Virus record (IMG/VR): IMGVR_UViG_3300020474_000109
Span: 1 to 23,999 of that record
Origin: a virus
Length of the DNA: 23,999 nucleotides
Reading direction: 5' to 3' (one strand)
The translations under genes and the position numbers were made by a program. Positions 4,509-23,999 of the stretch are shown here, piece after piece. Positions within the stretch are counted from its first letter, which is position 1, and each line of letters starts with the position of its first letter. Below the pieces are notes generated by a model that had not been told where the DNA came from, did no database searches, and saw nothing but the letters and a program-made list of their open reading frames with translations.

Positions 4509-4774
4509 TAGTTGAGATCCTCCTCTTGCTTGAGTGTCCTGAGATTGTGTACCATAATCTTAAACTCTTCGTCAGCGTGAGGTCTATCCATCATGCGGTT
4601 GAGTCTACATAATGCAGATTCTTTTGTGTCAAAGATACCTACAATTATAGTCTCAAAGCTGTAAGGACTTACACGTTGGATTGAGTAAACAACAGGATCG
4701 TCAGTAACATCAAAGGTCTTGATGTATTTGTCAGTTGTTGGTTGGGTGATGTTTGTTTTGATGGAATTAGCCAT
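4508..4774 (-). CDS. Hypothetical early protein, 88 aa
   Basis: I place the start at ATG 4772-4774, giving 88 aa (MANSIKTNITQPTTDKYIKT onward). The frame stays open upstream to 4834, but those residues read as a shadow of the endonuclease gene, and this ATG gives the 8-nt overlap (ATGGCTAA) seen at other junctions here. The middle, VYSIQRVSPYSFETIIVGIF, looks like paired beta strands. It is followed by a helical DTKESALCRLNRMMD segment, a layout typical of a small alpha/beta fold. No known family is recognised and no catalytic motif is visible. Confidence 0.7.
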   Translation of the reverse strand: MANSIKTNITQPTTDKYIKTFDVTDDPVVYSIQRVSPYSFETIIVGIFDTKESALCRLNRMMDRPHADEEFKIMVHNLRTLKQEEDLN

Positions 4775-5111
4775 GTGATTGGAGCCAGTTGAGTGAGCGT
4801 TGCATAGTGGATGAGTCATCGTCAAACTTGCCAAAGGCTACGTTGCATGAGTCGCAGATGTAACCTCTAAACTTGTCAGTCTTATGGTCATGGTCAAGAA
4901 CCCATTTGGTGGTATGCCTACCACACGCAGGGCAGTCGCCAGCTGCAGGTACAGGATGGTTGCGTCTCAGTCTGCGTCTGACTGTCGCTTGTTTGTTGGA
5001 GCAATGTTTGCAAGTATTCTTGCGACCTGCTCCCTGAGTGCTGAATAGTGGAAACTCTTCCAGTAGTTTGGTTTCTCCACATTCTTTGCATTTTTTAGAG
5101 ACATTCTGCAT
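4767..5111 (-). CDS. Recombination endonuclease VII-like HNH nuclease
   Basis: This 114-aa protein carries a typical endonuclease VII (T4 gp49-type) core. A zinc site is formed by C60-x2-C63 and C86-x2-C89. Between them is the catalytic DHDH motif at 73-76, followed by RGYICDSCNVAFGKFDDD with N90 after the last cysteine. Ahead of it is a second cysteine set, C8-x2-C11 and C34-x2-C37, which probably forms an N-terminal zinc ribbon for DNA binding. Such enzymes cut branched DNA or act as free-standing homing-like nucleases. Endonuclease I also occurs here, so two junction-type nucleases coexist. The start overlaps the preceding gene by 17 nt. Confidence 0.88.
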   Translation of the reverse strand: MQNVSKKCKECGETKLLEEFPLFSTQGAGRKNTCKHCSNKQATVRRRLRRNHPVPAAGDCPACGRHTTKWVLDHDHKTDKFRGYICDSCNVAFGKFDDDSSTMQRSLNWLQSHG

Positions 5112-11065: not shown

Positions 11066-11339
11066 AATTTACATTAATACTCATGTCTTGTAAACCCTTC
11101 ACGTCAGAAGGGATAACTTTAACACTAGGTTCATTACGCCATTCTTCACAAAAATCACATAGTTTATGGTAATCTTCAAGAGCGTCATCTACAGCTTTTC
11201 TGGCTTTGTAGTCCACGTATTGAGGTTCTACCCATAATAAAAACCACACCATAGCCCAACGTAAGGGCTTAGGTGTAGCTTGTGCTATGTCTTTGAGTTC
11301 CTGTAATAATAACTTGTTAGGGTTAAATAATTTATTCAT
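11028..11339 (-). CDS. Hypothetical late protein, 103 aa
   Basis: This is a 103-aa protein of unknown function between the HNH nuclease and endolysin genes. It has a short tryptophan-rich hydrophobic stretch at about 26-40 (PLRWAMVWFLLWVEP), perhaps an amphipathic or membrane-interacting helix. A charged helix with LCDFCEEW (two cysteines) follows, then a polar asparagine-rich tail ending PNSSDCDI. The hydrophobic part is short for a full transmembrane span, so a holin role is possible but poorly supported. The ATG overlaps the HNH stop as ATGA. Confidence 0.7.
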   Translation of the reverse strand: MNKLFNPNKLLLQELKDIAQATPKPLRWAMVWFLLWVEPQYVDYKARKAVDDALEDYHKLCDFCEEWRNEPSVKVIPSDVKGLQDMSINVNYDTNPNSSDCDI

Positions 11340-11665
11340 TTAATCCAATTTAAGATTAGGTTTTCTCTAAATGGGTTTGGTGGGAAGTTATCCCTAAACC
11401 ACGTTAACCAGTTGTTACTTCCTTTTTGTTGATTACATCGTCTACAGGCGGGAACACAGTTGCAAGTATTGGTATCACCTCCCAAACTTCGGGGATGTAC
11501 ATGGTCAATGGTAAGATCATATTCATGATGTTTTTGTCCGCAATAGATACATTCATAGTTGTTTGCCTCCTTAATAGCTTTTCTCCATAACCGTTTAGCG
11601 TCTGCTGATGTCATGACTATTAAGTTTTGTGTGTAATGTTTATAAGTAGGAAGTACTGGTGTCAT
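11336..11665 (-). CDS. HNH endonuclease
   Basis: This 109-aa protein has a complete HNH nuclease motif. C39-x2-C42 (ECIYCG) forms half of the zinc site, LTIDHVHPRSLGGD carries the catalytic D54-H55, N69 follows, and C74-x2-C77-N78 (CRRCNQQKGS) closes the site. HNH proteins beside terminase genes are common in phages and can assist DNA cleavage during packaging. Free-standing homing-type activity is the alternative. Start and stop both make ATGA overlaps with neighbours, so it is firmly part of the late operon and does not look recently inserted. An internal ATG at residue 18 (MTSADAKRLW) could be the true start. Confidence 0.9.
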   Translation of the reverse strand: MTPVLPTYKHYTQNLIVMTSADAKRLWRKAIKEANNYECIYCGQKHHEYDLTIDHVHPRSLGGDTNTCNCVPACRRCNQQKGSNNWLTWFRDNFPPNPFRENLILNWIK

Positions 11666-13845: not shown

Positions 13846-16800
13846 TTAACCAGCCTCTAATGCAGCTACTTTTGTTTCTAAAGTTTCTACTTTTGTAATT
13901 AACTCTTGTATAGCTTTAGCAGATACAGTCATAAATTTTACAGGAACAAGTTGTGTTTTTCCTAGTTCGTCAGTTATTGGATCTTTACTCTGAAATGTAA
14001 AACTATTATCTAGTGTTTCGACTTCTTGTGCAATAACACCACAAGTCTCTCTTTTAGTAGTATCAAATCCACTGTCTTCTTTCCAATCAAAATCTACAAA
14101 TCTTAGATTTTTAATTACTGAAGTTGCATCATATGTTGTATCAGTTATATTTTGTTTTAGTGTTGCATCAGATACGTTATAGTACACACCAAATCCACCA
14201 GAAGTTGTACCAACGTGTAGGTAATTACCTCCATGAGCAAGGTCATGTACACTATTACTAGAAGAATATACTAAACCATAACTAGTACCATTTCTATAAG
14301 TAGCATAGTCAGATACATTTGCGTGTGCTACAGCCGAAGTAACTTGTGCTCCAGTGTGAGTATGACTGGTAGCTGCATATGAGTGATTATGAGATGATCC
14401 TGCATAGGAACTGTCATGATTATGGGAAGTACCTGAGTAACCAGAGTGACTGTGACTTGTTGCAGCATAACTATGGCTATGGCTTGTTGCAGCATAACTA
14501 TGGCTATGGCTTGAAGCAGCATAACTGTGAGTGTGACTCGTAGCAGCATAACTGTGACTATGGCTACTTGATGCATACGGATGACTATGAGCTGTAGCAT
14601 AGTAAGAACCATGTTGACCGTCTAGTAAATCTGCATCTAATCCACTACTTGCACCATCTACAGTTTTAACAAGTGTAAGTATTTCAGAAGCAGTTTGGTC
14701 TTGGGTAGCATTACTTTCAATATTATCAAGTTTGTCGTGGTGCGTTGCAGACATAACTCCAGCAGCAGTACTGTTTGCCTCACCTATGATTGCATTGCTT
14801 CCTGAGCTACTTTGTACTGTAACATCAGTTGTACTAGTAGTAGCGACTAAATTTGTAGTTGTGTTAACTGAGTTTGTACTTGCACTTGTAATACGACCTT
14901 GAGCATCAACTGTAAGAGCAGGTATAGCTGTAGATGATCCATAACTACCAGCAGTAACAGTCGTATCAGCAAGTTTGTCAGCAGTTACTGCATCATCAGC
15001 AATATTTCCTTCAATAATAGTGTCATTTGCTATTTCTAATGCTGTAACTGCATTTGCAGCAATATGTGCTGACCTAACAGCATTGTCAGCTATTTCAGTA
15101 TGATCTACTGCATCAGCACCTATTTTGTCGTTTGTAATCGCATCATTAGCAATTTTTCCTGTAGTAACATTTAGGGCAGCTATCTTAGCTGTTGTTACGT
15201 TTGCATCTGCTATTTTAGCTGTTGTTACGTTTGCATCTACGATAGAAGCTGTTACGACTGCACTACTAGCTAATTGATCCGCACCAACTGCATCATCTGC
15301 AATCTTAGCTTGTGTAACTGCATCATCTGCAATCTTAGCTGTAGTAACTGCATCATTAGCTATTGTTAAAGATGTAGCACCTGTAACGTCACCTGTGTGG
15401 GTAGCGTTGGTTACTTTAGCTGTGTTAGCTGCAACATCTGTAGCTATGTCTATACCGTCAACTGTACCAGATACAGTGATATTACCTGTTACACCTATAC
15501 CACCAGATTGTACTTCTAGTTTTGTATTACCACCAGTTTGTATTTTTAAGTTACCTGTACCAGTATCATTAATTATTGAATCACTAGCATTATGGAATAT
15601 TTCTAAGTCTGAACTTGTACCAAGTTTTAATTTAGCATTATCATTATAAACATTATCACCAGTAAATGTATTACCAGTTGAAACTGCAAAGTTACCACTA
15701 GCTGTTACACCACCTTGCCAAGCACCACCATTATAAACTTTAAGTTCGTTAGCAGTACTATTAAAATACAAATCTCCTTCTACCAAACTTGAACCATCAG
15801 CTCTAGTTGATGGGTTGCTAGTAGCAATTTGGTAGACATCAGCAAAATTGTTGACATCACTAATATTAGTTGAAACATTAGTAACATCAGTAATATTACT
15901 AGCAACAGTATTAACATTTGCTATTGAATTTCCAGTGTTATTAACATTTGTAATATTTGTAGCAACTACATCAACACGGTCATCAACAACAGTAATAGTA
16001 GTACCCATAGCATTGCCATGTATTCCACAATAATACTTTAATGAACTAGGAGCGTTGTCTGCAACAACAATAGTTACGGTAGCACCCGAACTACCAGCTG
16101 TACCACTTGTTGTAACTCCTGTAGTGTAAGCTGCATCTGATGCATTTTTAAATAATAAAGGATGGTTAGTATTAGTATTATCAGCTAAATTAAATATATA
16201 TGTTGAGCCTCTAGCTAAAAATAAAACAGGAGTCTGTACACCGTCAATAAAATACTTATTACTACCACTGACATTTTGTACAGTAACTGTAAATGTCTGT
16301 GTAGAATCTAAAGCATTTGCTACACTGTTTACGTTTGTTATGTTTGTAGCAACAGTATTAATATTAGTAGCATTACTTACAGCAGAGTTAATATTAGTAG
16401 CATTACTTACTGCTGAGTTAATATTTGAAGCATTACTAACAGCAGCATTTATATTTGATTCATTGCTAACCGCTGAGTTAATGTTAGAAGCATTACTTAC
16501 AGCAGAATTAATATTAGACGCATTGCTTACAGCAGAGTTAATATTTGAAGCATTATTTGCAACTGCATTTATATTAGTTATATTACCAGCTACAGTTGTA
16601 ACTTCTGTTGCTTTTGGTACTAATCTGTGAAACGTATATGTATGCAGTGTGCTTGTAGATTCTACTAAAAATCCAAAATCTTGAGGTATGGTAGATGTTA
16701 CACCAGTTATAGTAATATTAGCATTGTTTGCTAAGTTACCATTAGATATTGTTACTGTTGTACCACTAGGAGTCAACGCTGTACTAGCTGCTTTAATACT

Positions 16801-18396
16801 TAATACAGCTGCCGATCCAGCCTGTCCTTGTGGATTAGAGTTTGGAAAACTTTGTTCATCAGCTAGAATGTCAAAACCACCGACATCATTTACAATGTCA
16901 ATAATTCTATCGTTGATAGCTGCAGTTGTTGCAATCGTAGTATCGTTATCAGGAAACGTATCACCATCTTTAATGGTTTCTCCAGAACTTATGTTAAAAT
17001 ATCTAGCGTCTGATTCTGTTTCAGTAAAGTATCTACCATCAAGAGCACCACCAGTTAATTCACTTTCAGTAAAGTATCTACCATCTAATGTACCTGTAGC
17101 TATCTTAGCATCTGTTATAGCATTTGCTGCAATTTTTGCTGTAGTTACGTTAGAATCTGCAATCTTTGCTGTTGTGACTGCATCATCAGCTATCTTTGCT
17201 TCTGTTACAGCAGAATCAGCCATGTCTCCTGCTACAATAGTGTTGTCTGCTATTTGCGTAGAAGTGACTGCATCATTAGCTATTTTTGCTGTAGTAACAT
17301 TTGCATCTGCAATCTTGGCTGTAGTTATACTACCATTACCAAATTTAGTAGAAGTTACAGCATTATCAAGAATTTTAGCTGAAGTGACTGCATTATCAGC
17401 TATTTTTGCTGTTGTAACTTGTGAGTCAGCTATATGAGCTGTATCTATAGACCCATCAACATAGTGTTCTGAGTTAATAGAATCATCAGCTATATTATCT
17501 CCATCTACTACATCATTAGCTAAATGTTCATGATCTATAGAGCCATCTACATAATGCTCTGAATTTATACTGTTGTCAGCTATTTTTGTGCCATTAATAG
17601 CATCTGCTGCAATTTTAGCAGTAGTTACTTGACTATCTGCAATATGCTCAGTATCTATAGAACCAGCTGCATAGTGTTCAGAGTTAATAACATCATCTTG
17701 TATGTTATCACCATCTATACAGTTGTTTGCTAAATTACCATGTTGAACTTGTCCAGTCCCAATATGCTGCGAGTCTATACTACCGTCAACATAGTGCTCT
17801 GAATCTATTTGGTCATTTGCTATTTTAGCGTTAGTTATAGCATCGTTTGCTATATCAGTTGTTTGTATTGAACCGTCAACTATATTATCTGAAGTAATAT
17901 AATTAGAAGATATTGCATCTCCATCAAACAGTGCTCCTTCTATTTCTAATGCTTTATTTCTAGCTTCTTGTGCTGTAAAATTCGATTCTTGTGCTGAGTT
18001 GTTAAGATCAATAGATCTAATTGTACTACCACTGGCAAAGCTTGTATATGTACCGTCTTCATCTCTTGTTCTACGTTCACAAAATACTACTGCCCCACTA
18101 GGTAGTGCAGAGTTAAATGTAATTGTATTATTATCGCTGGATAGTGTGTAGTTGTATAAAGTTGTATTTGCTGAAACTGCAGGGAAGTATAATCCATCTG
18201 TATTATTCACCTGTGGGTGACTAGATTGTGCAGTACTACCAGTAGACTGGCGTAGCTGTAGCACTCTAGTACCACCCGACAATGTGACATAAACATCTAG
18301 ATCATCTTGGTTATTCAGTTGTATGCTGACTGGCGTAAATACAGTTGTAGTTGCATTAGACGTAGCAGCGAAAGTTTTTTTAGTTGTAACTGCCAT
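13846..18396 (-). CDS. Tail fibre with T7 gp17-type N-terminus, cupredoxin-like domain, HxH repeats and S74 chaperone
   Basis: This 1516-aa protein should recognise the host surface. Residues ~1-150 fit the T7 gp17 attachment domain, including GSTIRSIDLNNSAQESNFTA and QEARNKALE. Residues ~170-440 and ~1008-1145 are short degenerate repeats of the VTTAKIADDA type. Residues ~605-690 repeat NINSAVSNA. Residues ~690-800 form a cupredoxin-like domain with H745, C790, H793 and M797. Residues ~1265-1352 carry nine HxH motifs. The C-terminus is an S74 intramolecular chaperone with a likely self-cleavage site S1409-D1410 (VSDATLKQNI) and a GVIAQEVE motif, ending in a short coiled coil. It is far longer than T7 gp17 (553 aa). 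A 26-nt spacer precedes it. Confidence 0.92.
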   Translation of the reverse strand: MAVTTKKTFAATSNATTTVFTPVSIQLNNQDDLDVYVTLSGGTRVLQLRQSTGSTAQSSHPQVNNTDGLYFPAVSANTTLYNYTLSSDNNTITFNSALPSGAVVFCERRTRDEDGTYTSFASGSTIRSIDLNNSAQESNFTAQEARNKALEIEGALFDGDAISSNYITSDNIVDGSIQTTDIANDAITNAKIANDQIDSEHYVDGSIDSQHIGTGQVQHGNLANNCIDGDNIQDDVINSEHYAAGSIDTEHIADSQVTTAKIAADAINGTKIADNSINSEHYVDGSIDHEHLANDVVDGDNIADDSINSEHYVDGSIDTAHIADSQVTTAKIADNAVTSAKILDNAVTSTKFGNGSITTAKIADANVTTAKIANDAVTSTQIADNTIVAGDMADSAVTEAKIADDAVTTAKIADSNVTTAKIAANAITDAKIATGTLDGRYFTESELTGGALDGRYFTETESDARYFNISSGETIKDGDTFPDNDTTIATTAAINDRIIDIVNDVGGFDILADEQSFPNSNPQGQAGSAAVLSIKAASTALTPSGTTVTISNGNLANNANITITGVTSTIPQDFGFLVESTSTLHTYTFHRLVPKATEVTTVAGNITNINAVANNASNINSAVSNASNINSAVSNASNINSAVSNESNINAAVSNASNINSAVSNATNINSAVSNATNINTVATNITNVNSVANALDSTQTFTVTVQNVSGSNKYFIDGVQTPVLFLARGSTYIFNLADNTNTNHPLLFKNASDAAYTTGVTTSGTAGSSGATVTIVVADNAPSSLKYYCGIHGNAMGTTITVVDDRVDVVATNITNVNNTGNSIANVNTVASNITDVTNVSTNISDVNNFADVYQIATSNPSTRADGSSLVEGDLYFNSTANELKVYNGGAWQGGVTASGNFAVSTGNTFTGDNVYNDNAKLKLGTSSDLEIFHNASDSIINDTGTGNLKIQTGGNTKLEVQSGGIGVTGNITVSGTVDGIDIATDVAANTAKVTNATHTGDVTGATSLTIANDAVTTAKIADDAVTQAKIADDAVGADQLASSAVVTASIVDANVTTAKIADANVTTAKIAALNVTTGKIANDAITNDKIGADAVDHTEIADNAVRSAHIAANAVTALEIANDTIIEGNIADDAVTADKLADTTVTAGSYGSSTAIPALTVDAQGRITSASTNSVNTTTNLVATTSTTDVTVQSSSGSNAIIGEANSTAAGVMSATHHDKLDNIESNATQDQTASEILTLVKTVDGASSGLDADLLDGQHGSYYATAHSHPYASSSHSHSYAATSHTHSYAASSHSHSYAATSHSHSYAATSHSHSGYSGTSHNHDSSYAGSSHNHSYAATSHTHTGAQVTSAVAHANVSDYATYRNGTSYGLVYSSSNSVHDLAHGGNYLHVGTTSGGFGVYYNVSDATLKQNITDTTYDATSVIKNLRFVDFDWKEDSGFDTTKRETCGVIAQEVETLDNSFTFQSKDPITDELGKTQLVPVKFMTVSAKAIQELITKVETLETKVAALEAG
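14340..14600 (-). repeat. HxH repeat array in tail fibre
   Basis: The coding DNA carries about eight near-repeats of the SHSHSYAAT type, giving nine His-x-His motifs at residues ~1265-1352. In T4 gp37 similar HxH motifs bind iron along a trimeric needle, so this section probably forms a metal-stabilised intertwined fibre. Confidence 0.85.
14960..15370 (-). repeat. AKIADDAVTT-type repeats, block 2, in tail fibre
   Basis: About a dozen degenerate copies of a roughly 9-12-residue unit (for example DAVTTAKIADDAVTQAKIAD, then ANVTTAKIA) encode residues ~1008-1145. The DNA copies are close enough to allow slippage or recombination. They are probably a triple-stranded beta shaft. Confidence 0.8.
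16338..16580 (-). repeat. NINSAVSNA repeats in tail fibre
   Basis: Around nine tandem copies of a 9-residue unit, NINSAVSNA with variants such as NINAAVSNA, are encoded as roughly 27-bp DNA repeats at residues ~605-690. They sit just before the cupredoxin-like domain and probably form a regular coiled or beta-helical spacer. Confidence 0.85.
17080..17890 (-). repeat. EHYVDGSID / TTAKIAD repeats, block 1, in tail fibre
   Basis: Two interleaved repeat types, the INSEHYVDGSID-type unit and the VTTAKIADDA-type unit, alternate over residues ~170-440. They form the first shaft segment after the attachment domain. Sequence variation between copies suggests long-standing duplication and divergence. 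Confidence 0.8.
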
Positions 18397-18422: not shown

Positions 18423-21400
18423 TTATTTTGGAAAATCTTCAATCAAATATTTAATAGTGTCATAATTACCTAAAGCTCCAGAACGTCTTTTACGCTCTTG
18501 TTCTTTTAACTTGTTAGCTATTTCACTGTTCTCTTGCTTCATTCTTGTATATGCTTCTTTCTTTGCTTTCCTAAATTCTTTTTGTATCATCTTATAAAAC
18601 TTCTGGTCTTCCACTCTATACCCAGCTCGTCTTGTTAACCCAAGAGCTTTAAACTCTTTATATCCTGTTTGGAATGAGCCATTAGGATCTAGCATAATTC
18701 TTTCAAGATTCTTACGTAAACTACTCATAGATATATATTTAGACATCATAGACCTTTCAGTCGATGTTAAACGTAAACCTTTGTATGTTTTAGTAACCTC
18801 TGGTAAGTTATATCCTATTTCATATAGCATAGTTTTTACAGGATCACCTGATGTATTAGTAACAGCTACAGGGGATAATAGATTAAATGTTCTCATCAAA
18901 GGATTAGCTCCAGGCATCTCTAACTTCTTGCCAGATCTATCTTTTGCTAACATATCATACTTAGGAGGTATGGTAGATTTAAACATTGCATCACGTCTTA
19001 TCATCATTTCCCACATATTATTAGCTTCTTTCTGGTTAGCATCTAACACATCACCCATACTACCTAGTAAACCTGAGTAAGGTAATGCAGATCTAAGGGT
19101 TTTAGAAACTAATCTACCACCTTTATTAGCTAATCCTTCTGGATCTAATACAGCTGCTAAGTCTTCTACACCTGCAAGCATAGATTTATCTACAAGAGTT
19201 GCAGCTGCCATAAAACTAAGAGTCTCAAACATCTCAGTTCTTATGTTTTCATCTAACGCATGCTGATAATTAGCAAGGTTTGCTGCTGTAGCTATAATAG
19301 TGTTAAAAGGTTCGAGGTCTCTATAGGAAAACATAGTATTACCAATACGCATAGTATGTGGTCTGATACCTTCCATCTTCCATAAGTCTCTCATCTCTTT
19401 ATCACGAGGGACATCTCCATAAATACTACCTGTCATAGCACCTATAAACGCCATACTTGCTATAGTAGATCCCATAGCAATTCGTCCGTCTTGTAATGCC
19501 CTTTCAGCTGGTAAATCAGCTGCTGTGAGTCCATATTTCTCTAGATTGACACCATCTCTAATGTCTTTAAACCTTCTTTGCATCATTTCTAGAGGTGTGT
19601 GTTGTACTGTTAAACGTACAGCGTTATATCCAGTTCTTACAAACGGGAAAAACAACATACCTACTGGATTAGATGATAAAGATTCAAAGGCTTTAGCCCA
19701 ACCTTCTACATCTTTTGTCATAGTAGCTTCTCGACCAGCCATTAATGCTGCACCATCAGTTACTACATACTGATTATCTTTATCTAATTGGAAAATTTGG
19801 TCAATAAATCTCTGTTCTTGTGATTTTGCATAGTCAGTTAAGTTATCAAGAGGTATACCTTTATCTATTCCTTCTTGTGCAGCTCTGATACGAGCAGTAA
19901 AACGCCCTATAACATGCCTTGCAGCAGCATCACCTGCCCCCATAATGTTCTGTGAGTAACGCATAAAGGGGTTTGTGTTTAGTCTAACTAACCTATTAAT
20001 GACTTGATACATAGTCTTTTCACTATCAGTACCAAATTCTTCTGCATATTTACCTAATCTCTGAAAATTTTTCAAGTCATTTGGCAGGTCAAAACGTCCT
20101 GTGTATGATAACCGTTGATTATGTACACCTTGATCCCAGTTATGTTTAAAAATCTTCCAACTTTCAGAATAAGCTTTACCAATACCATCAATAACTGCAG
20201 CAGCTAAAGCTGATTGTTCTCTATTTACTCTACCTGGCAGATTGGCTCCAGCCCACATTTGGAATGGTCGGAGTACAGTTATAAGGTTTGTACCTACAAC
20301 AGCTCTTATAGGCGTTTTAGGTGAGCTTAGAATAGAACTATAGTAAACAGAAGACAACTCTCGTAACAGTTGTGAATTAATCTTATTACCATCAACTACA
20401 CCACCAAAACCAAACCTAGCTTTTAGATAGGATTGCATCATGCTAAGAGATCTTACATTACCATCGGTAATAGCATATATCTCAGATAGTTGTCTAGCTC
20501 CTCTTTTATCACCTTTTTCTAGTAAATCTTTTAAATTTTGTGTAAAAGTTTTTTCTTCTTGTTTAATCTGTTTTAGACGTTTAATGTGCCTAGCTCTAGC
20601 AGCTTGTGGAAATATACCATCTCCACGTTGTGCTTGCAAAGCATTACCTGTCATATAAGATATGTTCTTTAACTCAACCATTGCTATCTGTAAATGGTCA
20701 AGTATATTAATAGCTTGTCTAGTTGCGTTAGCACCTTTAGGAAGCATTGTAACTCCTGTACCAATATCAGCTGCTTTCCGTAGATTATAATGTATAGCTA
20801 TAGTCAAAGCATTTTTCATTTGTGGAGTTATAGTAACTATTTTTTCTCCGTCAAAATCCCAAAAAATAAAGTTTTTTCTACCAGTTATATCATCAACCTT
20901 AAGGTTAGTTTTACCACTTAAATCTGCATTAAGATAACGTCTTAAAGCTCTAAGACCTTCTTCTCCACCAACACCTATTATATCATTTATTTCTTTAGCT
21001 TTTTGAAATATAGTATCTAAGTGGTCAGACCAAGGTTGAGCATTATCAATTTGCCTAAATGATGATTCAACTGTGTTGTCCATTATCTCTGTAATAAACT
21101 TACGTAGAGAACGGTCATCATTTGTCATCCTTCTTATAGAAGGTTCAGTAGCCATAGTAGTAGAACCAACAGGTCTGCGACCAGCCTTTCTATTTAATGT
21201 AGCTTCGTTTAAATTTTCTGCGTAAATATTCTTACTGTCAGTATCAATACGCTCTGTAGCTTTTTCTGATTCACCAAATTTATTAGGGTTAACAGCAGGA
21301 TCTGGTTTACGTAACCTATCAACTGCATCTTGTTTACTACTTTTACCTAATTCTGGTAGCCAAGTATCGCCTCCAGCTTTACCTTTAGCTAATGCAAGAT

Positions 21401-23312
21401 CAATATAATCTTGTAATGTAGCTGTTTCAGTAGATGTTTTACCTAATTCAATTTGATTTCTAGGATCCCAATATATTTGTACTTGGTGCATACGCTTACC
21501 TTTACCAGCATACAAGCCACCTTGATGTGTATATCCACCAAATCCTGATTTTTGTAATCTTTGTTGAATTTCCTCTAAAATATACTCAGCATGTTCCCAC
21601 GCATCCATATCATAGTCTTCCCAAGCAATTTTACGACTTGTTCTAATAAAATCAGCTAACGAACCATCTCTACCTACAAGGTCTAAAGTGTCACTAAAAA
21701 TATTACTCATGTCACCATCAACGTCATTAGCTGAAACTTTAGCTATTTGTTCATCTATCCATTTAAGAGCTTCATTCATACCGAATGGAGCAGTCTTCGT
21801 CATAGGGACATCAAGATCATAAAATTTTACATCTTGTAATTTCCTAGTTTGATAGATTAAAGGATTACTTAACTCAGCTTCTACTTTCTTTCTTTTTTTA
21901 TTTTTATATTTATTAGCTGTAATTATATCATCTGTAGTATAAAAACCATATCCAAATAATCCTGGGCCACCTTCTTGATAATAGTTAGCATCTGTAGGGC
22001 CATCTAACCTATCTATTTCTACTGATGTACCATGAAAATATGTACCTTTACCACGAGTATCTACAATACGATCTTGTTCTTTAATAGTTCTATCTGGAAA
22101 ACCTTCTGCAGGATCACCTTTAATTACTACATCTCCTTTTAGTTTTTCTCCCGCAAGTAACCTTTGAGCTTCCTCATAGTCACCTTCATGTAAATACTTT
22201 CTTAAATATAGATCTAAATAATCTACATCAGCACGTACACCTTTACCTTCATTATAATTAAAATCAGCTAATTCTTTGTTATGAATCCCATCCTGATCTA
22301 TTTGTTTTCTAATATACTTTTGAGCTACTGCAGTACCTTCGTTGTTAGCTCTATTGATAACATCTGCATAAAAATCTTTAATAACAAAGCCTTTACCTAA
22401 CGCATCTGTACCACCTTTTAATAATTTAGGGTCAGAACCACTTAGTAACTTTTGCTCTTCTATTAATTCTTTAGCTCGTTTCTTAGCAAATACTTTACCT
22501 TTAAGAAAACCTACTAAAGCATGCCCTACTAAGTTAGCTCCAGCTCCAGCTGTAACTGACTTAATTCTAGCAAACCAAGGGTTGTCCTCTTCATTAATTT
22601 GTAATGCTTCAGAAAAAGGTATCATAGGAGCATACTGATTCACGAGATTAGCTATGTTAGCTTCTTCAGAATCATTCATTATAAAATCAGCTACAGCACC
22701 CTCACCTGCTATCTTACCAATTTTTTGCATTTTAGGACTGGTTAAAAACTGAATAGGTCTACTACCAGCTTTAAACTTAGAAGCCATACTTAATAGCTTT
22801 GTACCAGTACCTGTAGCTTTTACAGCTCCCCCAAGGGCTGGGGCTAAAGCTCCACCAGTTGCTGATGTAGCTACAGCTAATAAACCAAACTCACCTAGAC
22901 CTCTAAGTAATTTACCCAAACCTGATTTAGTCTCAGGTGTAAATCTATCTGGTATATCTATCCAGTTACCTTTTTTATAATTTTTAGCAAATGGGTTTTC
23001 TTCATCTGGTTGTCCATATCCAAATAATGTATTAGCAGCAGTTGTAAAGGTATCACCGCTAAGATCTAGAAATGATCCTACACTCTCTACCGCATCCACA
23101 GCTGCACCTAAAGGTACTGATACTACATCTTGTAGAGCCTGTGCGGGGTTGTCTGCTAACATTCCAACATCTGGTACTTGTTGAGATGCTTGTTCTAGTT
23201 GTTCTACTAATCTGTTTTGTTGTAGAAAATCTTTACCAGTATCAAGTATCTCCTTAAACGTGTCATCAGTGGGTTCGTCCATAGAACGAAGAGGATTTGC
23301 TGAATCAGTCAT
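18423..23312 (-). CDS. Large internal virion/ejection protein (T7 gp16-like position) with ADP-ribosyltransferase-like domain
   Basis: This 1629-aa protein lies where T7 encodes its internal core protein gp16 (1318 aa), just before the tail fibre, and should be ejected into the host with the DNA. Hydrophobic segments suited to a membrane channel occur at ~141-160 and ~1277-1298. Residues ~420-620 look like an ADP-ribosyltransferase: GTYFHGTS with H427, GLFGYGFYTTDD with Y458, and a closing HQVQIYWDPRNQI with Q612 near where such enzymes usually carry Glu. I see no lytic transglycosylase motif like that at the N-terminus of T7 gp16. Residues ~990-1400 (YYSSILSSPKTPIRAVV onward) look like the polyvalent-protein regions of phage virions. 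The C-terminus is basic and coiled. Its ATG shares one base with the upstream stop. Confidence 0.85.
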   Translation of the reverse strand: MTDSANPLRSMDEPTDDTFKEILDTGKDFLQQNRLVEQLEQASQQVPDVGMLADNPAQALQDVVSVPLGAAVDAVESVGSFLDLSGDTFTTAANTLFGYGQPDEENPFAKNYKKGNWIDIPDRFTPETKSGLGKLLRGLGEFGLLAVATSATGGALAPALGGAVKATGTGTKLLSMASKFKAGSRPIQFLTSPKMQKIGKIAGEGAVADFIMNDSEEANIANLVNQYAPMIPFSEALQINEEDNPWFARIKSVTAGAGANLVGHALVGFLKGKVFAKKRAKELIEEQKLLSGSDPKLLKGGTDALGKGFVIKDFYADVINRANNEGTAVAQKYIRKQIDQDGIHNKELADFNYNEGKGVRADVDYLDLYLRKYLHEGDYEEAQRLLAGEKLKGDVVIKGDPAEGFPDRTIKEQDRIVDTRGKGTYFHGTSVEIDRLDGPTDANYYQEGGPGLFGYGFYTTDDIITANKYKNKKRKKVEAELSNPLIYQTRKLQDVKFYDLDVPMTKTAPFGMNEALKWIDEQIAKVSANDVDGDMSNIFSDTLDLVGRDGSLADFIRTSRKIAWEDYDMDAWEHAEYILEEIQQRLQKSGFGGYTHQGGLYAGKGKRMHQVQIYWDPRNQIELGKTSTETATLQDYIDLALAKGKAGGDTWLPELGKSSKQDAVDRLRKPDPAVNPNKFGESEKATERIDTDSKNIYAENLNEATLNRKAGRRPVGSTTMATEPSIRRMTNDDRSLRKFITEIMDNTVESSFRQIDNAQPWSDHLDTIFQKAKEINDIIGVGGEEGLRALRRYLNADLSGKTNLKVDDITGRKNFIFWDFDGEKIVTITPQMKNALTIAIHYNLRKAADIGTGVTMLPKGANATRQAINILDHLQIAMVELKNISYMTGNALQAQRGDGIFPQAARARHIKRLKQIKQEEKTFTQNLKDLLEKGDKRGARQLSEIYAITDGNVRSLSMMQSYLKARFGFGGVVDGNKINSQLLRELSSVYYSSILSSPKTPIRAVVGTNLITVLRPFQMWAGANLPGRVNREQSALAAAVIDGIGKAYSESWKIFKHNWDQGVHNQRLSYTGRFDLPNDLKNFQRLGKYAEEFGTDSEKTMYQVINRLVRLNTNPFMRYSQNIMGAGDAAARHVIGRFTARIRAAQEGIDKGIPLDNLTDYAKSQEQRFIDQIFQLDKDNQYVVTDGAALMAGREATMTKDVEGWAKAFESLSSNPVGMLFFPFVRTGYNAVRLTVQHTPLEMMQRRFKDIRDGVNLEKYGLTAADLPAERALQDGRIAMGSTIASMAFIGAMTGSIYGDVPRDKEMRDLWKMEGIRPHTMRIGNTMFSYRDLEPFNTIIATAANLANYQHALDENIRTEMFETLSFMAAATLVDKSMLAGVEDLAAVLDPEGLANKGGRLVSKTLRSALPYSGLLGSMGDVLDANQKEANNMWEMMIRRDAMFKSTIPPKYDMLAKDRSGKKLEMPGANPLMRTFNLLSPVAVTNTSGDPVKTMLYEIGYNLPEVTKTYKGLRLTSTERSMMSKYISMSSLRKNLERIMLDPNGSFQTGYKEFKALGLTRRAGYRVEDQKFYKMIQKEFRKAKKEAYTRMKQENSEIANKLKEQERKRRSGALGNYDTIKYLIEDFPK

Positions 23313-23999
23313 TATTTAATACCAAGATACTCTTTTGCTTTTTCTCGTAAATGTTCATCTTTTTGTTTATTTAATTGTTGAATTGTTTTCTTATTAGCAC
23401 CAATATATTTATCCCCATGTTGTTCCATCCATGAGTTGTTTATGGTGTAGAAAGGTGTATTAAATAAATCTACCTCATTACCAGTTTGTTTACCAGTTTT
23501 ATCAAATCTGTATTGACGAGACAAGATGTTTAATAAATAAGTCCTATTAGGTCTAGTTTCAAAACTCTTACCTTTTCTCAAATCATCATACACACCTTTA
23601 ACAGTTCTAAGAGTCTCAACTCTTTTTTCCCAGTCATTATATATTGGGTTATATTTAAAGGAGTGACCCATAGCATGTTTAATTTTAATAAATTTCTCTG
23701 GTTTAATATCAGGATTTTCTAATATTGCTAATTGAGCATCAATTCCTTCTATATCTTTATAGTCAATAATGTCATTTTTAAGAATGTTTTCTACAACAAA
23801 ATTAGGTTTAATATCTAGTCGTTGTTCAGTTTTAGTCAAACCTCTAGTACTAGATGAAACAAGACTATTATTACTATAAGTATTTATAAGTTTAGAAGTA
23901 TCACCTGAGTAATAACCATCAAGTACTGCAAAAGCATAATCTGATTTTTGATTATTAATACTATCATGAATACTGCCTTCACTATAATCCATCATAGAT
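23312..23999 (-). CDS. C-terminal part of an upstream internal virion protein
   Basis: The frame is open to the right edge, so at least ~227 residues of a longer protein are visible. It ends KAKEYLGIK with a stop that overlaps the next ATG (TAATG). The visible part is polar and mostly helical, including GYYSGDTSKLINTYSNNSLV and NRTYLLNILSRQYRFDKTGK, with a charged coiled-coil-like end. By position, before the gp16-like gene, it may be the counterpart of T7 gp15, but I see no sequence proof. The ATG at 23993-23995 is probably internal. Confidence 0.6.
   Translation of the reverse strand, partial: SMMDYSEGSIHDSINNQKSDYAFAVLDGYYSGDTSKLINTYSNNSLVSSSTRGLTKTEQRLDIKPNFVVENILKNDIIDYKDIEGIDAQLAILENPDIKPEKFIKIKHAMGHSFKYNPIYNDWEKRVETLRTVKGVYDDLRKGKSFETRPNRTYLLNILSRQYRFDKTGKQTGNEVDLFNTPFYTINNSWMEQHGDKYIGANKKTIQQLNKQKDEHLREKAKEYLGIK

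What the first reader, a model, noticed from the sequence alone, without database searches (positions are those of the whole stretch)
21420..22060. ADP-ribosyltransferase-like domain embedded in a T7-type ejection protein
Residues ~420-620 of the 1629-aa virion protein carry the layout of an H-Y-[E/Q] class ADP-ribosyltransferase: YFHGTS (H427), then GLFGYGFYTTDD (Y458), then a C-terminal strand QVQIYWDPRNQI. T4 injects the ART Alt with its DNA to modify host RNA polymerase. A podovirus core protein that doubles as a DNA-ejection channel and an injected NAD-dependent effector would be a distinct solution. The same protein shows no transglycosylase motif where T7 gp16 has one. The expected catalytic Glu appears to be Gln (Q612), so the domain may be active with another residue or may be degenerate.
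Basis: partly seen in the sequence, partly recalled or inferred. Interest (0 to 1): 0.82.

Follow-up and report, generated by a model that had tools for sequence, protein, structure and literature searches.

The report
ADP-ribosyltransferase-fold domain in phage ejection protein
A marine short-tailed phage carries, inside the large protein it ejects into its host along with its DNA, an extra domain folded like enzymes that tag proteins with ADP-ribose, so the phage may deliver a host-modifying enzyme as part of its DNA-delivery machine.

Summary
Confirmed, with corrections. The 1629-aa protein (18423-23312, minus strand) is a phrog_6651 internal virion protein, matching cyanophage gp16-type core proteins. 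Residues ~397-642 are a discrete insert, absent from Tangaroavirus relatives (1363 aa) but present at the same site in 28 other IMG/VR contigs. In 24 aligned inserts (down to 19% identity) H427, Y458, Y487, H609, Y614, W615, Q620 and the glycines are invariant. Three ART-clan Pfam families recur as weak hits. An AlphaFold model (pTM 0.72) best matches a domain of the cyanophage A-4L pre-ejectosome protein (PDB 9k3a, Z 11.4), then catalytic domains of diphtheria toxin, cholix and PARPs. So the ART fold is well supported. Corrections: Q612 is not the catalytic position (Arg in 21 of 24). The third-motif residue is most likely 610 (Gln/Asn/Lys) beside invariant H609; no acidic residue is conserved there, so catalysis is unproven. 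Precedents: polyvalent-protein ARTs, an N4-like RNA polymerase-ART fusion, and A-4L/Pf-WMP3 (H-Y-D). New here: this lineage, the mid-protein insertion, the acid-less third motif, and a sister clade adding a zincin-like HELWH domain. Best reading: an ejected ART-fold effector, plausibly cytoplasmic; activity and target unknown.

The parts
18423..23312 (-). internal virion (gp16-type ejection) protein, 1629 aa
   Evidence: ORF; phrog_6651 'internal virion protein' E 9.7e-241 over residues 26-1619; tblastn to cyanophage internal virion proteins incl. P-SSP7 gp16
21387..22124 (-). ART-fold insert, residues ~397-642
   Evidence: absent from P-SSP10/9515-10a, whose matches break at 396 and resume at 643; Pfam DUF3990 E 0.0039-0.0068, ART-PolyVal E 0.04; AF2 pLDDT 71.2, pTM 0.72; structural matches to ARTs
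22026..22040 (-). motif 1 YFHGT, residues 425-429, H427 = ART b1 His
   Evidence: H427 and G428 invariant in 24/24
21933..21962 (-). motif 2 GLFGYGFYTT, residues 451-460, Y458 = ART b2 Tyr
   Evidence: G454, G456, Y458 invariant in 24/24
21453..21488 (-). motif 3 HQVQIYWDPRNQ, residues 609-620; 610 is the likely third catalytic position (Q/K/N in the family), H609 invariant
   Evidence: columns 609-620; comparison with H-Y-D motif 3 of A-4L (DTTLVINP) and Pf-WMP3 (DTVAIYNP)
23067..23126 (-). hydrophobic segment, residues 63-82
   Evidence: Kyte-Doolittle
22821..22898 (-). hydrophobic segment, residues 139-164
   Evidence: Kyte-Doolittle
22503..22559 (-). hydrophobic segment, residues 252-270, before the ART insert
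   Evidence: Kyte-Doolittle
18426..21377 (-). conserved ejection-protein body, residues 646-1629, with hydrophobic segment 1278-1297
   Evidence: 36% identity to P-SSP10
23312..23998 (-). C-terminal part of the upstream gene (gp15 position; orthologues 1092-1096 aa in L007/L002), cut by the window edge

Best explanation
Residues ~397-642 form an ADP-ribosyltransferase-fold domain of the H-Y-x (diphtheria toxin/PARP/polyvalent) kind, inserted into the internal virion protein of a T7-like marine podovirus. Shown here: the insert, its conservation at one site across three deep clades, the invariant His and Tyr motifs, and an ART-like predicted fold. Inferred from the parent protein: the domain is packaged in the capsid and ejected with the other core proteins. 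It lies after the N-terminal hydrophobic segments and before the conserved body, so on the T7 gp16 model (first membrane region, then cytoplasmic hub) it would end up at the cytoplasmic side of the inner membrane, where NAD+ is available, before any phage gene is expressed. Inferred and uncertain: it binds NAD+ and mono-ADP-ribosylates an early host target such as RNA polymerase or a defence factor (or hydrolyses NAD+). The acidic residue of motif 3 is replaced by Gln/Asn/Lys next to an invariant His, so the chemistry must differ from H-Y-E/D enzymes, or the domain only binds NAD or another nucleotide.
For: Fold: AF2 pTM 0.72; best PDB match 9k3a_B residues 1421-1604 (Foldseek E 5.9e-4, prob 1.00; Z 11.4 over 172 residues), identified as the 1717-aa A-4L protein; next diphtheria toxin Z 7.5, cholix, RES toxins, PARPs; BFVD hits include ART-PolyVal-like and polyvalent proteins and Pf-WMP3_26. 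Sequence: DUF3990 in 12/24, ART-PolyVal 7/24, PARP 2/24 members. H427 and Y458 in 24/24. Constraint: ART dN/dS 0.09-0.56. Accessory insert at one site, at least 3 gains or losses. A sister clade adds a HELWH...DEWFAE zincin-like domain after the ART, the effector-stacking style of polyvalent proteins (PMC5512222). Topology: with the T7 layout from PMC8954989.
Against: All Pfam scores are below gathering cut-offs. No acidic residue at motif 3; position 610 varies Q/K/N. Mean pLDDT is only 71, and Z under 8 (every row but A-4L) can be a common arrangement (note). The profile does not find A-4L or Pf-WMP3 by sequence. T7 gp16 itself is not detectably homologous, so topology is by analogy. Many related phages lack the domain, so it is not needed for ejection. 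Presence of this protein in virions has not been shown.
Confidence: 0.6

Rival explanations
1. Degenerate ART: the fold is kept as a structural, DNA- or ligand-binding module of the ejectosome (NAD or nucleotide binding at most), with catalysis lost together with the motif-3 acid.
For: No E/D at positions 609-612 in 24/24; Gln, Asn and Lys all tolerated at 610, while A-4L and Pf-WMP3 keep Asp there. Higher dN/dS than the body in the few pairs where both were measured.
Against: H427, Y458, Y487, H609, Y614, W615 and Q620 are invariant down to 19% identity, which points to a kept pocket; the H-Y-[EDQ] clade includes Gln, and human PARPs with non-acidic third residues are listed as mono-ARTs (PMC7955679).
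Confidence: 0.3
2. The insert is a structural spacer with an unrelated fold that only resembles an ART.
For: Sub-threshold Pfam scores; modest pLDDT.
Against: Structure match Z 11.4 to the A-4L domain, which itself carries ART-like motifs HGT...GTYFS...GVDAL...D; Pf-WMP3_26 residues 1156-1432 match phrog_832 'RNA polymerase ADP-ribosylase' (E 2.9e-24); three ART-clan families recur among the top weak hits.
Confidence: 0.07

Closest known systems
Anabaena phage A-4L ORF27L (PDB 9k3a_B, cyanopodophage pre-ejectosome) and Pf-WMP3_26 (Saffermanviridae)
   Same: ART-like domain in the large core protein encoded next to the tail fibre gene; for A-4L seen in the packaged pre-ejectosome
   Different: different phage family and unrelated body; ART near the C-terminus; motif 3 has Asp (H-Y-D); no sequence-level match to our profile
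Polyvalent-protein ARTs (ART-PolyVal / Tox-ART-HYD2), e.g. Roseovarius Plymouth podovirus 1 N4-like RNA polymerase fusion (PMC5512222)
   Same: ART in a giant virion protein predicted to be injected; His and Tyr motifs; some relatives of the window add a zincin-like domain
   Different: H-Y-D active site there, Q/N/K here; below the Pfam cut-off; parent protein is a T7-like internal virion protein rather than a vRNAP or typical polyvalent protein
Phage T4 Alt
   Same: would be a virion-packaged, injected ADP-ribosyltransferase
   Different: R-S-E clade ART and a head-packaged protein that is not part of an ejection channel (PMC5512222)
T7 gp16
   Same: gene position between gp15 and the tail fibre, size class, hydrophobic segments flanking a large central part; T7 gp16 also carries an enzyme domain (transglycosylase)
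   Different: no transglycosylase found here; enzyme-like insert is mid-protein; no detectable sequence homology

Membership tests
ART superfamily, H-Y-[EDQ] class | ART fold, with b1 and b2 carrying the His and Tyr motifs | tested here: met
   AF2 model and PDB/BFVD matches; prediction, not a solved structure
ART superfamily, H-Y-[EDQ] class | His in b1 (HG[ST]-like) and Tyr in b2 | tested here: met
   H427-G428 and Y458 invariant 24/24, on predicted strands 26-29 and 58-61
ART superfamily, H-Y-[EDQ] class | E, D or Q as third catalytic residue | tested here: inconclusive
   Q610 in the window fits, but N or K in relatives; register 609/610 is not certain
ART superfamily, H-Y-[EDQ] class | NAD-dependent transferase activity | not testable with these tools
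   needs an enzyme assay
ART-PolyVal (PF18760) / Tox-ART-HYD2 | score above curated cut-off | tested here: not met
   15.0-15.1 bits against 31.2
ART-PolyVal (PF18760) / Tox-ART-HYD2 | H-Y-D active site (PMC5512222) | tested here: not met
   no Asp at 609-612 in 24/24
DUF3990 (PF13151) | score above curated cut-off | tested here: not met
   17.2 bits against 32.2
Alt/VIP2 (R-S-E) ARTs | Arg, Ser, Glu active site | tested here: not met
   His and Tyr motifs instead
phrog_6651 internal virion protein (cyanophage gp16-type) | full-length profile match | tested here: met
   E 9.7e-241, residues 26-1619
T7 gp16 | sequence homology to T7 gp16 | tested here: not met
   hhalign finds none; the link is via P-SSP7 gp16, itself assigned by synteny and size
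T7 gp16 | N-terminal lytic transglycosylase | tested here: not met
   no SLT hit in Pfam
Polyvalent proteins | several effector domains in one virion-delivered polypeptide | tested here: inconclusive
   window has one such domain; 10 relatives have ART plus a HELWH domain

The most novel reading that the evidence does not exclude
A subunit of a T7-like DNA-ejection machine doubles as an injected, cytoplasm-facing NAD-dependent enzyme whose active site works without the usual motif-3 acid (H-Y-Q/N/K with an adjacent invariant His), in some relatives paired with a metallopeptidase in the same ejection protein.
Probability: 0.35. Interest if true: 0.75.

Novelty: new variant of a known kind. Interest (0 to 1): 0.52.

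Why it matters
It would show that T7-like podoviruses can use the ejection channel itself to deliver enzymes at the first moment of infection, at a defined insertion site that comes and goes between relatives and can carry stacked effectors. It gives a bounded domain (about 245 aa) with clear invariant residues that can be expressed and assayed, and a solved structural precedent (A-4L) makes packaging of such a domain plausible.

Tried and rejected
Domain alone by tblastn in 'phages': nothing useful. Domain alone in viral contigs with a single sequence: nothing; with a two-row alignment, two loci; reaching the rest needed the whole protein. Domain in genome contigs: no relative, so no bacterial donor identified; that search only reaches sequences sharing short conserved peptides. 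NCBIfam and PHROGs gave no useful hit on the domain. PDB sequence search gave sub-significant hits only, Chelona toxin and PARP16 among unrelated T-cell receptors (repeated once by mistake). A second AF2 job on the ART+zincin segment of L048 failed (pLDDT 44.6) and was not searched. Considered and rejected: Q612 as catalytic residue; D616 as catalytic Asp (D/N/E/T/F in the family); T4 Alt-type ART. The paper on A-4L (Hou et al. 2025, PNAS, cited in PMC12810830) is not held, so whether its authors recognised the ART-like domain is unknown to me.

Full report
The gene. The window is an IMG/VR virus record of 23,999 bases. The minus-strand ORF 18423-23312 encodes 1629 aa. It matches phrog_6651, 'internal virion protein', along its whole length (E 9.7e-241), and by tblastn the internal virion proteins of Prochlorococcus and Synechococcus podoviruses, including P-SSP7 gp16. 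It lies between a gp15-position gene (1092-1096 aa in the relatives L007/L002; cut by the window edge here) and a tail fibre gene (13846-18396). A direct profile comparison with T7 gp16 finds nothing, and P-SSP7 gp16 was named 'by synteny and size', so 'gp16-type' rests on position, size and the cyanophage link.

The insert. Matches to P-SSP10 and 9515-10a (1363 aa) break at residue 396 and resume at 643 (alignment). The segment between is an insert of about 245 aa. Among gp16 homologues fetched from viral contigs, a profile of the insert finds it in 28 contigs other than the window, all in the same gene at the same site, at E 1e-61 to 1e-88, and finds nothing else in the fetched DNA below E 0.3. 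Some contigs are near copies. The scan used two short conserved peptides, so it is not a random sample.

Conservation. In 24 distinct inserts (identity to the window down to 19%) the invariant residues are H427, G428, G454, G456, Y458, Y487, V495, G590, G592, G593, H609, Y614, W615 and Q620. These include the [FY]HG and G-[FL]-Y motifs of H-Y type ADP-ribosyltransferases. Position 610 is Gln in 14, Lys in 7, Asn in 3. No acidic residue is conserved at positions 609-612.

Fold. Pfam gives sub-threshold hits to DUF3990 (best E 0.0039) in 12 members, ART-PolyVal in 7 and PARP in 2; they rank first, second and fourth by number of members matched, and DUF3990 is in Pfam's ART clan (PMC7955679). An AlphaFold2 model from the 24-sequence alignment has pLDDT 71.2 and pTM 0.72, with the His on strand 26-29 and the Tyr on strand 58-61 of the model (add 399 for protein numbering). 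The best PDB match is 9k3a_B, 'Cyanophage A4 pre-ejectosome', residues 1421-1604 (Foldseek E 5.9e-4; Z 11.4, rmsd 4.4 over 172 residues). The rows that follow are ARTs or ART-fold toxins: diphtheria toxin, cholix, exotoxin A, RES toxins, PARPs (Z 5.6-7.5). Z below 8 alone could be a common arrangement; the agreement with motifs and Pfam is what carries it. Among viral models, ART-PolyVal-like and polyvalent proteins and Phormidium phage Pf-WMP3_26 appear.

The A-4L precedent. 9k3a_B is the 1717-aa product of A-4L ORF27L. Its matched region carries LYHGT (H1426), GSGTYFS (Y1448) and GVDALTDGDTTLVINP (D1586); Pf-WMP3_26 has FHGT (H1201), TAIYLT (Y1229) and GIDGVSSADTVAIYNP (D1364), and its residues 1156-1432 match phrog_832 'RNA polymerase ADP-ribosylase' (E 2.9e-24). 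Both thus look H-Y-D, as described for polyvalent ARTs (PMC5512222). Aligned on the 'NP/DP' after the strand, their Asp falls on residue 610 of the window; the neighbour H609 cannot be excluded because the loop before it has gaps. The window family has therefore probably replaced the acid by Gln, Asn or Lys beside an invariant His.

Evolution. On a tree of the conserved body, the ART occurs in three deep clades and needs at least three changes; truncated fragments were set aside. One clade of ten has a further ~300 aa after the ART with HELWH...DEWFAE, a zincin-like motif; Pfam's best guess there is SprT-like at E 0.034. Zincin-like metallopeptidases are recurrent partners in polyvalent proteins (PMC5512222). 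Pairwise dN/dS of the ART is 0.09-0.56, so it is under purifying selection, though looser than the body in the three pairs where both could be measured (body 0.05-0.11). The domain is accessory, not needed for ejection as such.

Likely mechanism. T7 gp16 is packaged, ejected, and modelled as periplasmic N-terminus, first membrane region (243-410), cytoplasmic DNA-binding part (411-1118) and second membrane region (1119-1290) (PMC8954989). In the window protein the hydrophobic segments lie at 63-82, 139-164, 252-270 and 1278-1297; the ART insert follows the first set. By analogy it would sit at the cytoplasmic mouth of the channel, where NAD+ is present, at the first moment of infection. This step is inference. 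My estimates: ART fold 0.92; NAD or nucleotide binding 0.7; catalysis 0.5; cytoplasmic exposure 0.6. The main rival is a degenerate ART kept for binding or structure.

Novelty. ARTs in virion-delivered phage proteins, including a podovirus N4-like RNA polymerase fusion, were predicted in 2017 (PMC5512222), ARTs were reported in about 3% of podoviruses (PMC9503650), and an ART-fold domain in a podovirus pre-ejectosome is in the PDB. In the papers that could be searched, I saw no title or abstract describing an ART in a T7-like internal virion protein. The finding is a new variant: new phage lineage, mid-protein insertion at a recurrent site, acid-less motif 3, and an ART-plus-zincin sister form.

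Noticed in passing
L048, L061, L062, L064, L067, L068, L072, L083, L084, L085 (e.g. L048 protein residue 710 onward): The same ejection protein in one clade (1866-1894 aa where complete) carries a second extra domain after the ART with HELWH and DE[WFY]FAE, a zincin metallopeptidase-like motif.
   Followed up: partly
L066:7637-8356 and L069:7925-8434: Homologues without the ART have a different insert of about 110-120 aa at the same site, without a convincing Pfam match.
   Followed up: partly
L019:8675-8677: Single G-to-T difference from L018 gives a stop just after the ART. Sequencing error or real truncation.
   Followed up: partly
window 13846-18396: Tail fibre gene full of 30-base tandem repeats encoding TTAKIADxAVT-like units; the opposite-strand ORF of 249 aa at 16688-17437 is probably spurious.
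   Followed up: no
window 4767-5111 and 11336-11665: Two small endonuclease VII/HNH genes.
   Followed up: no
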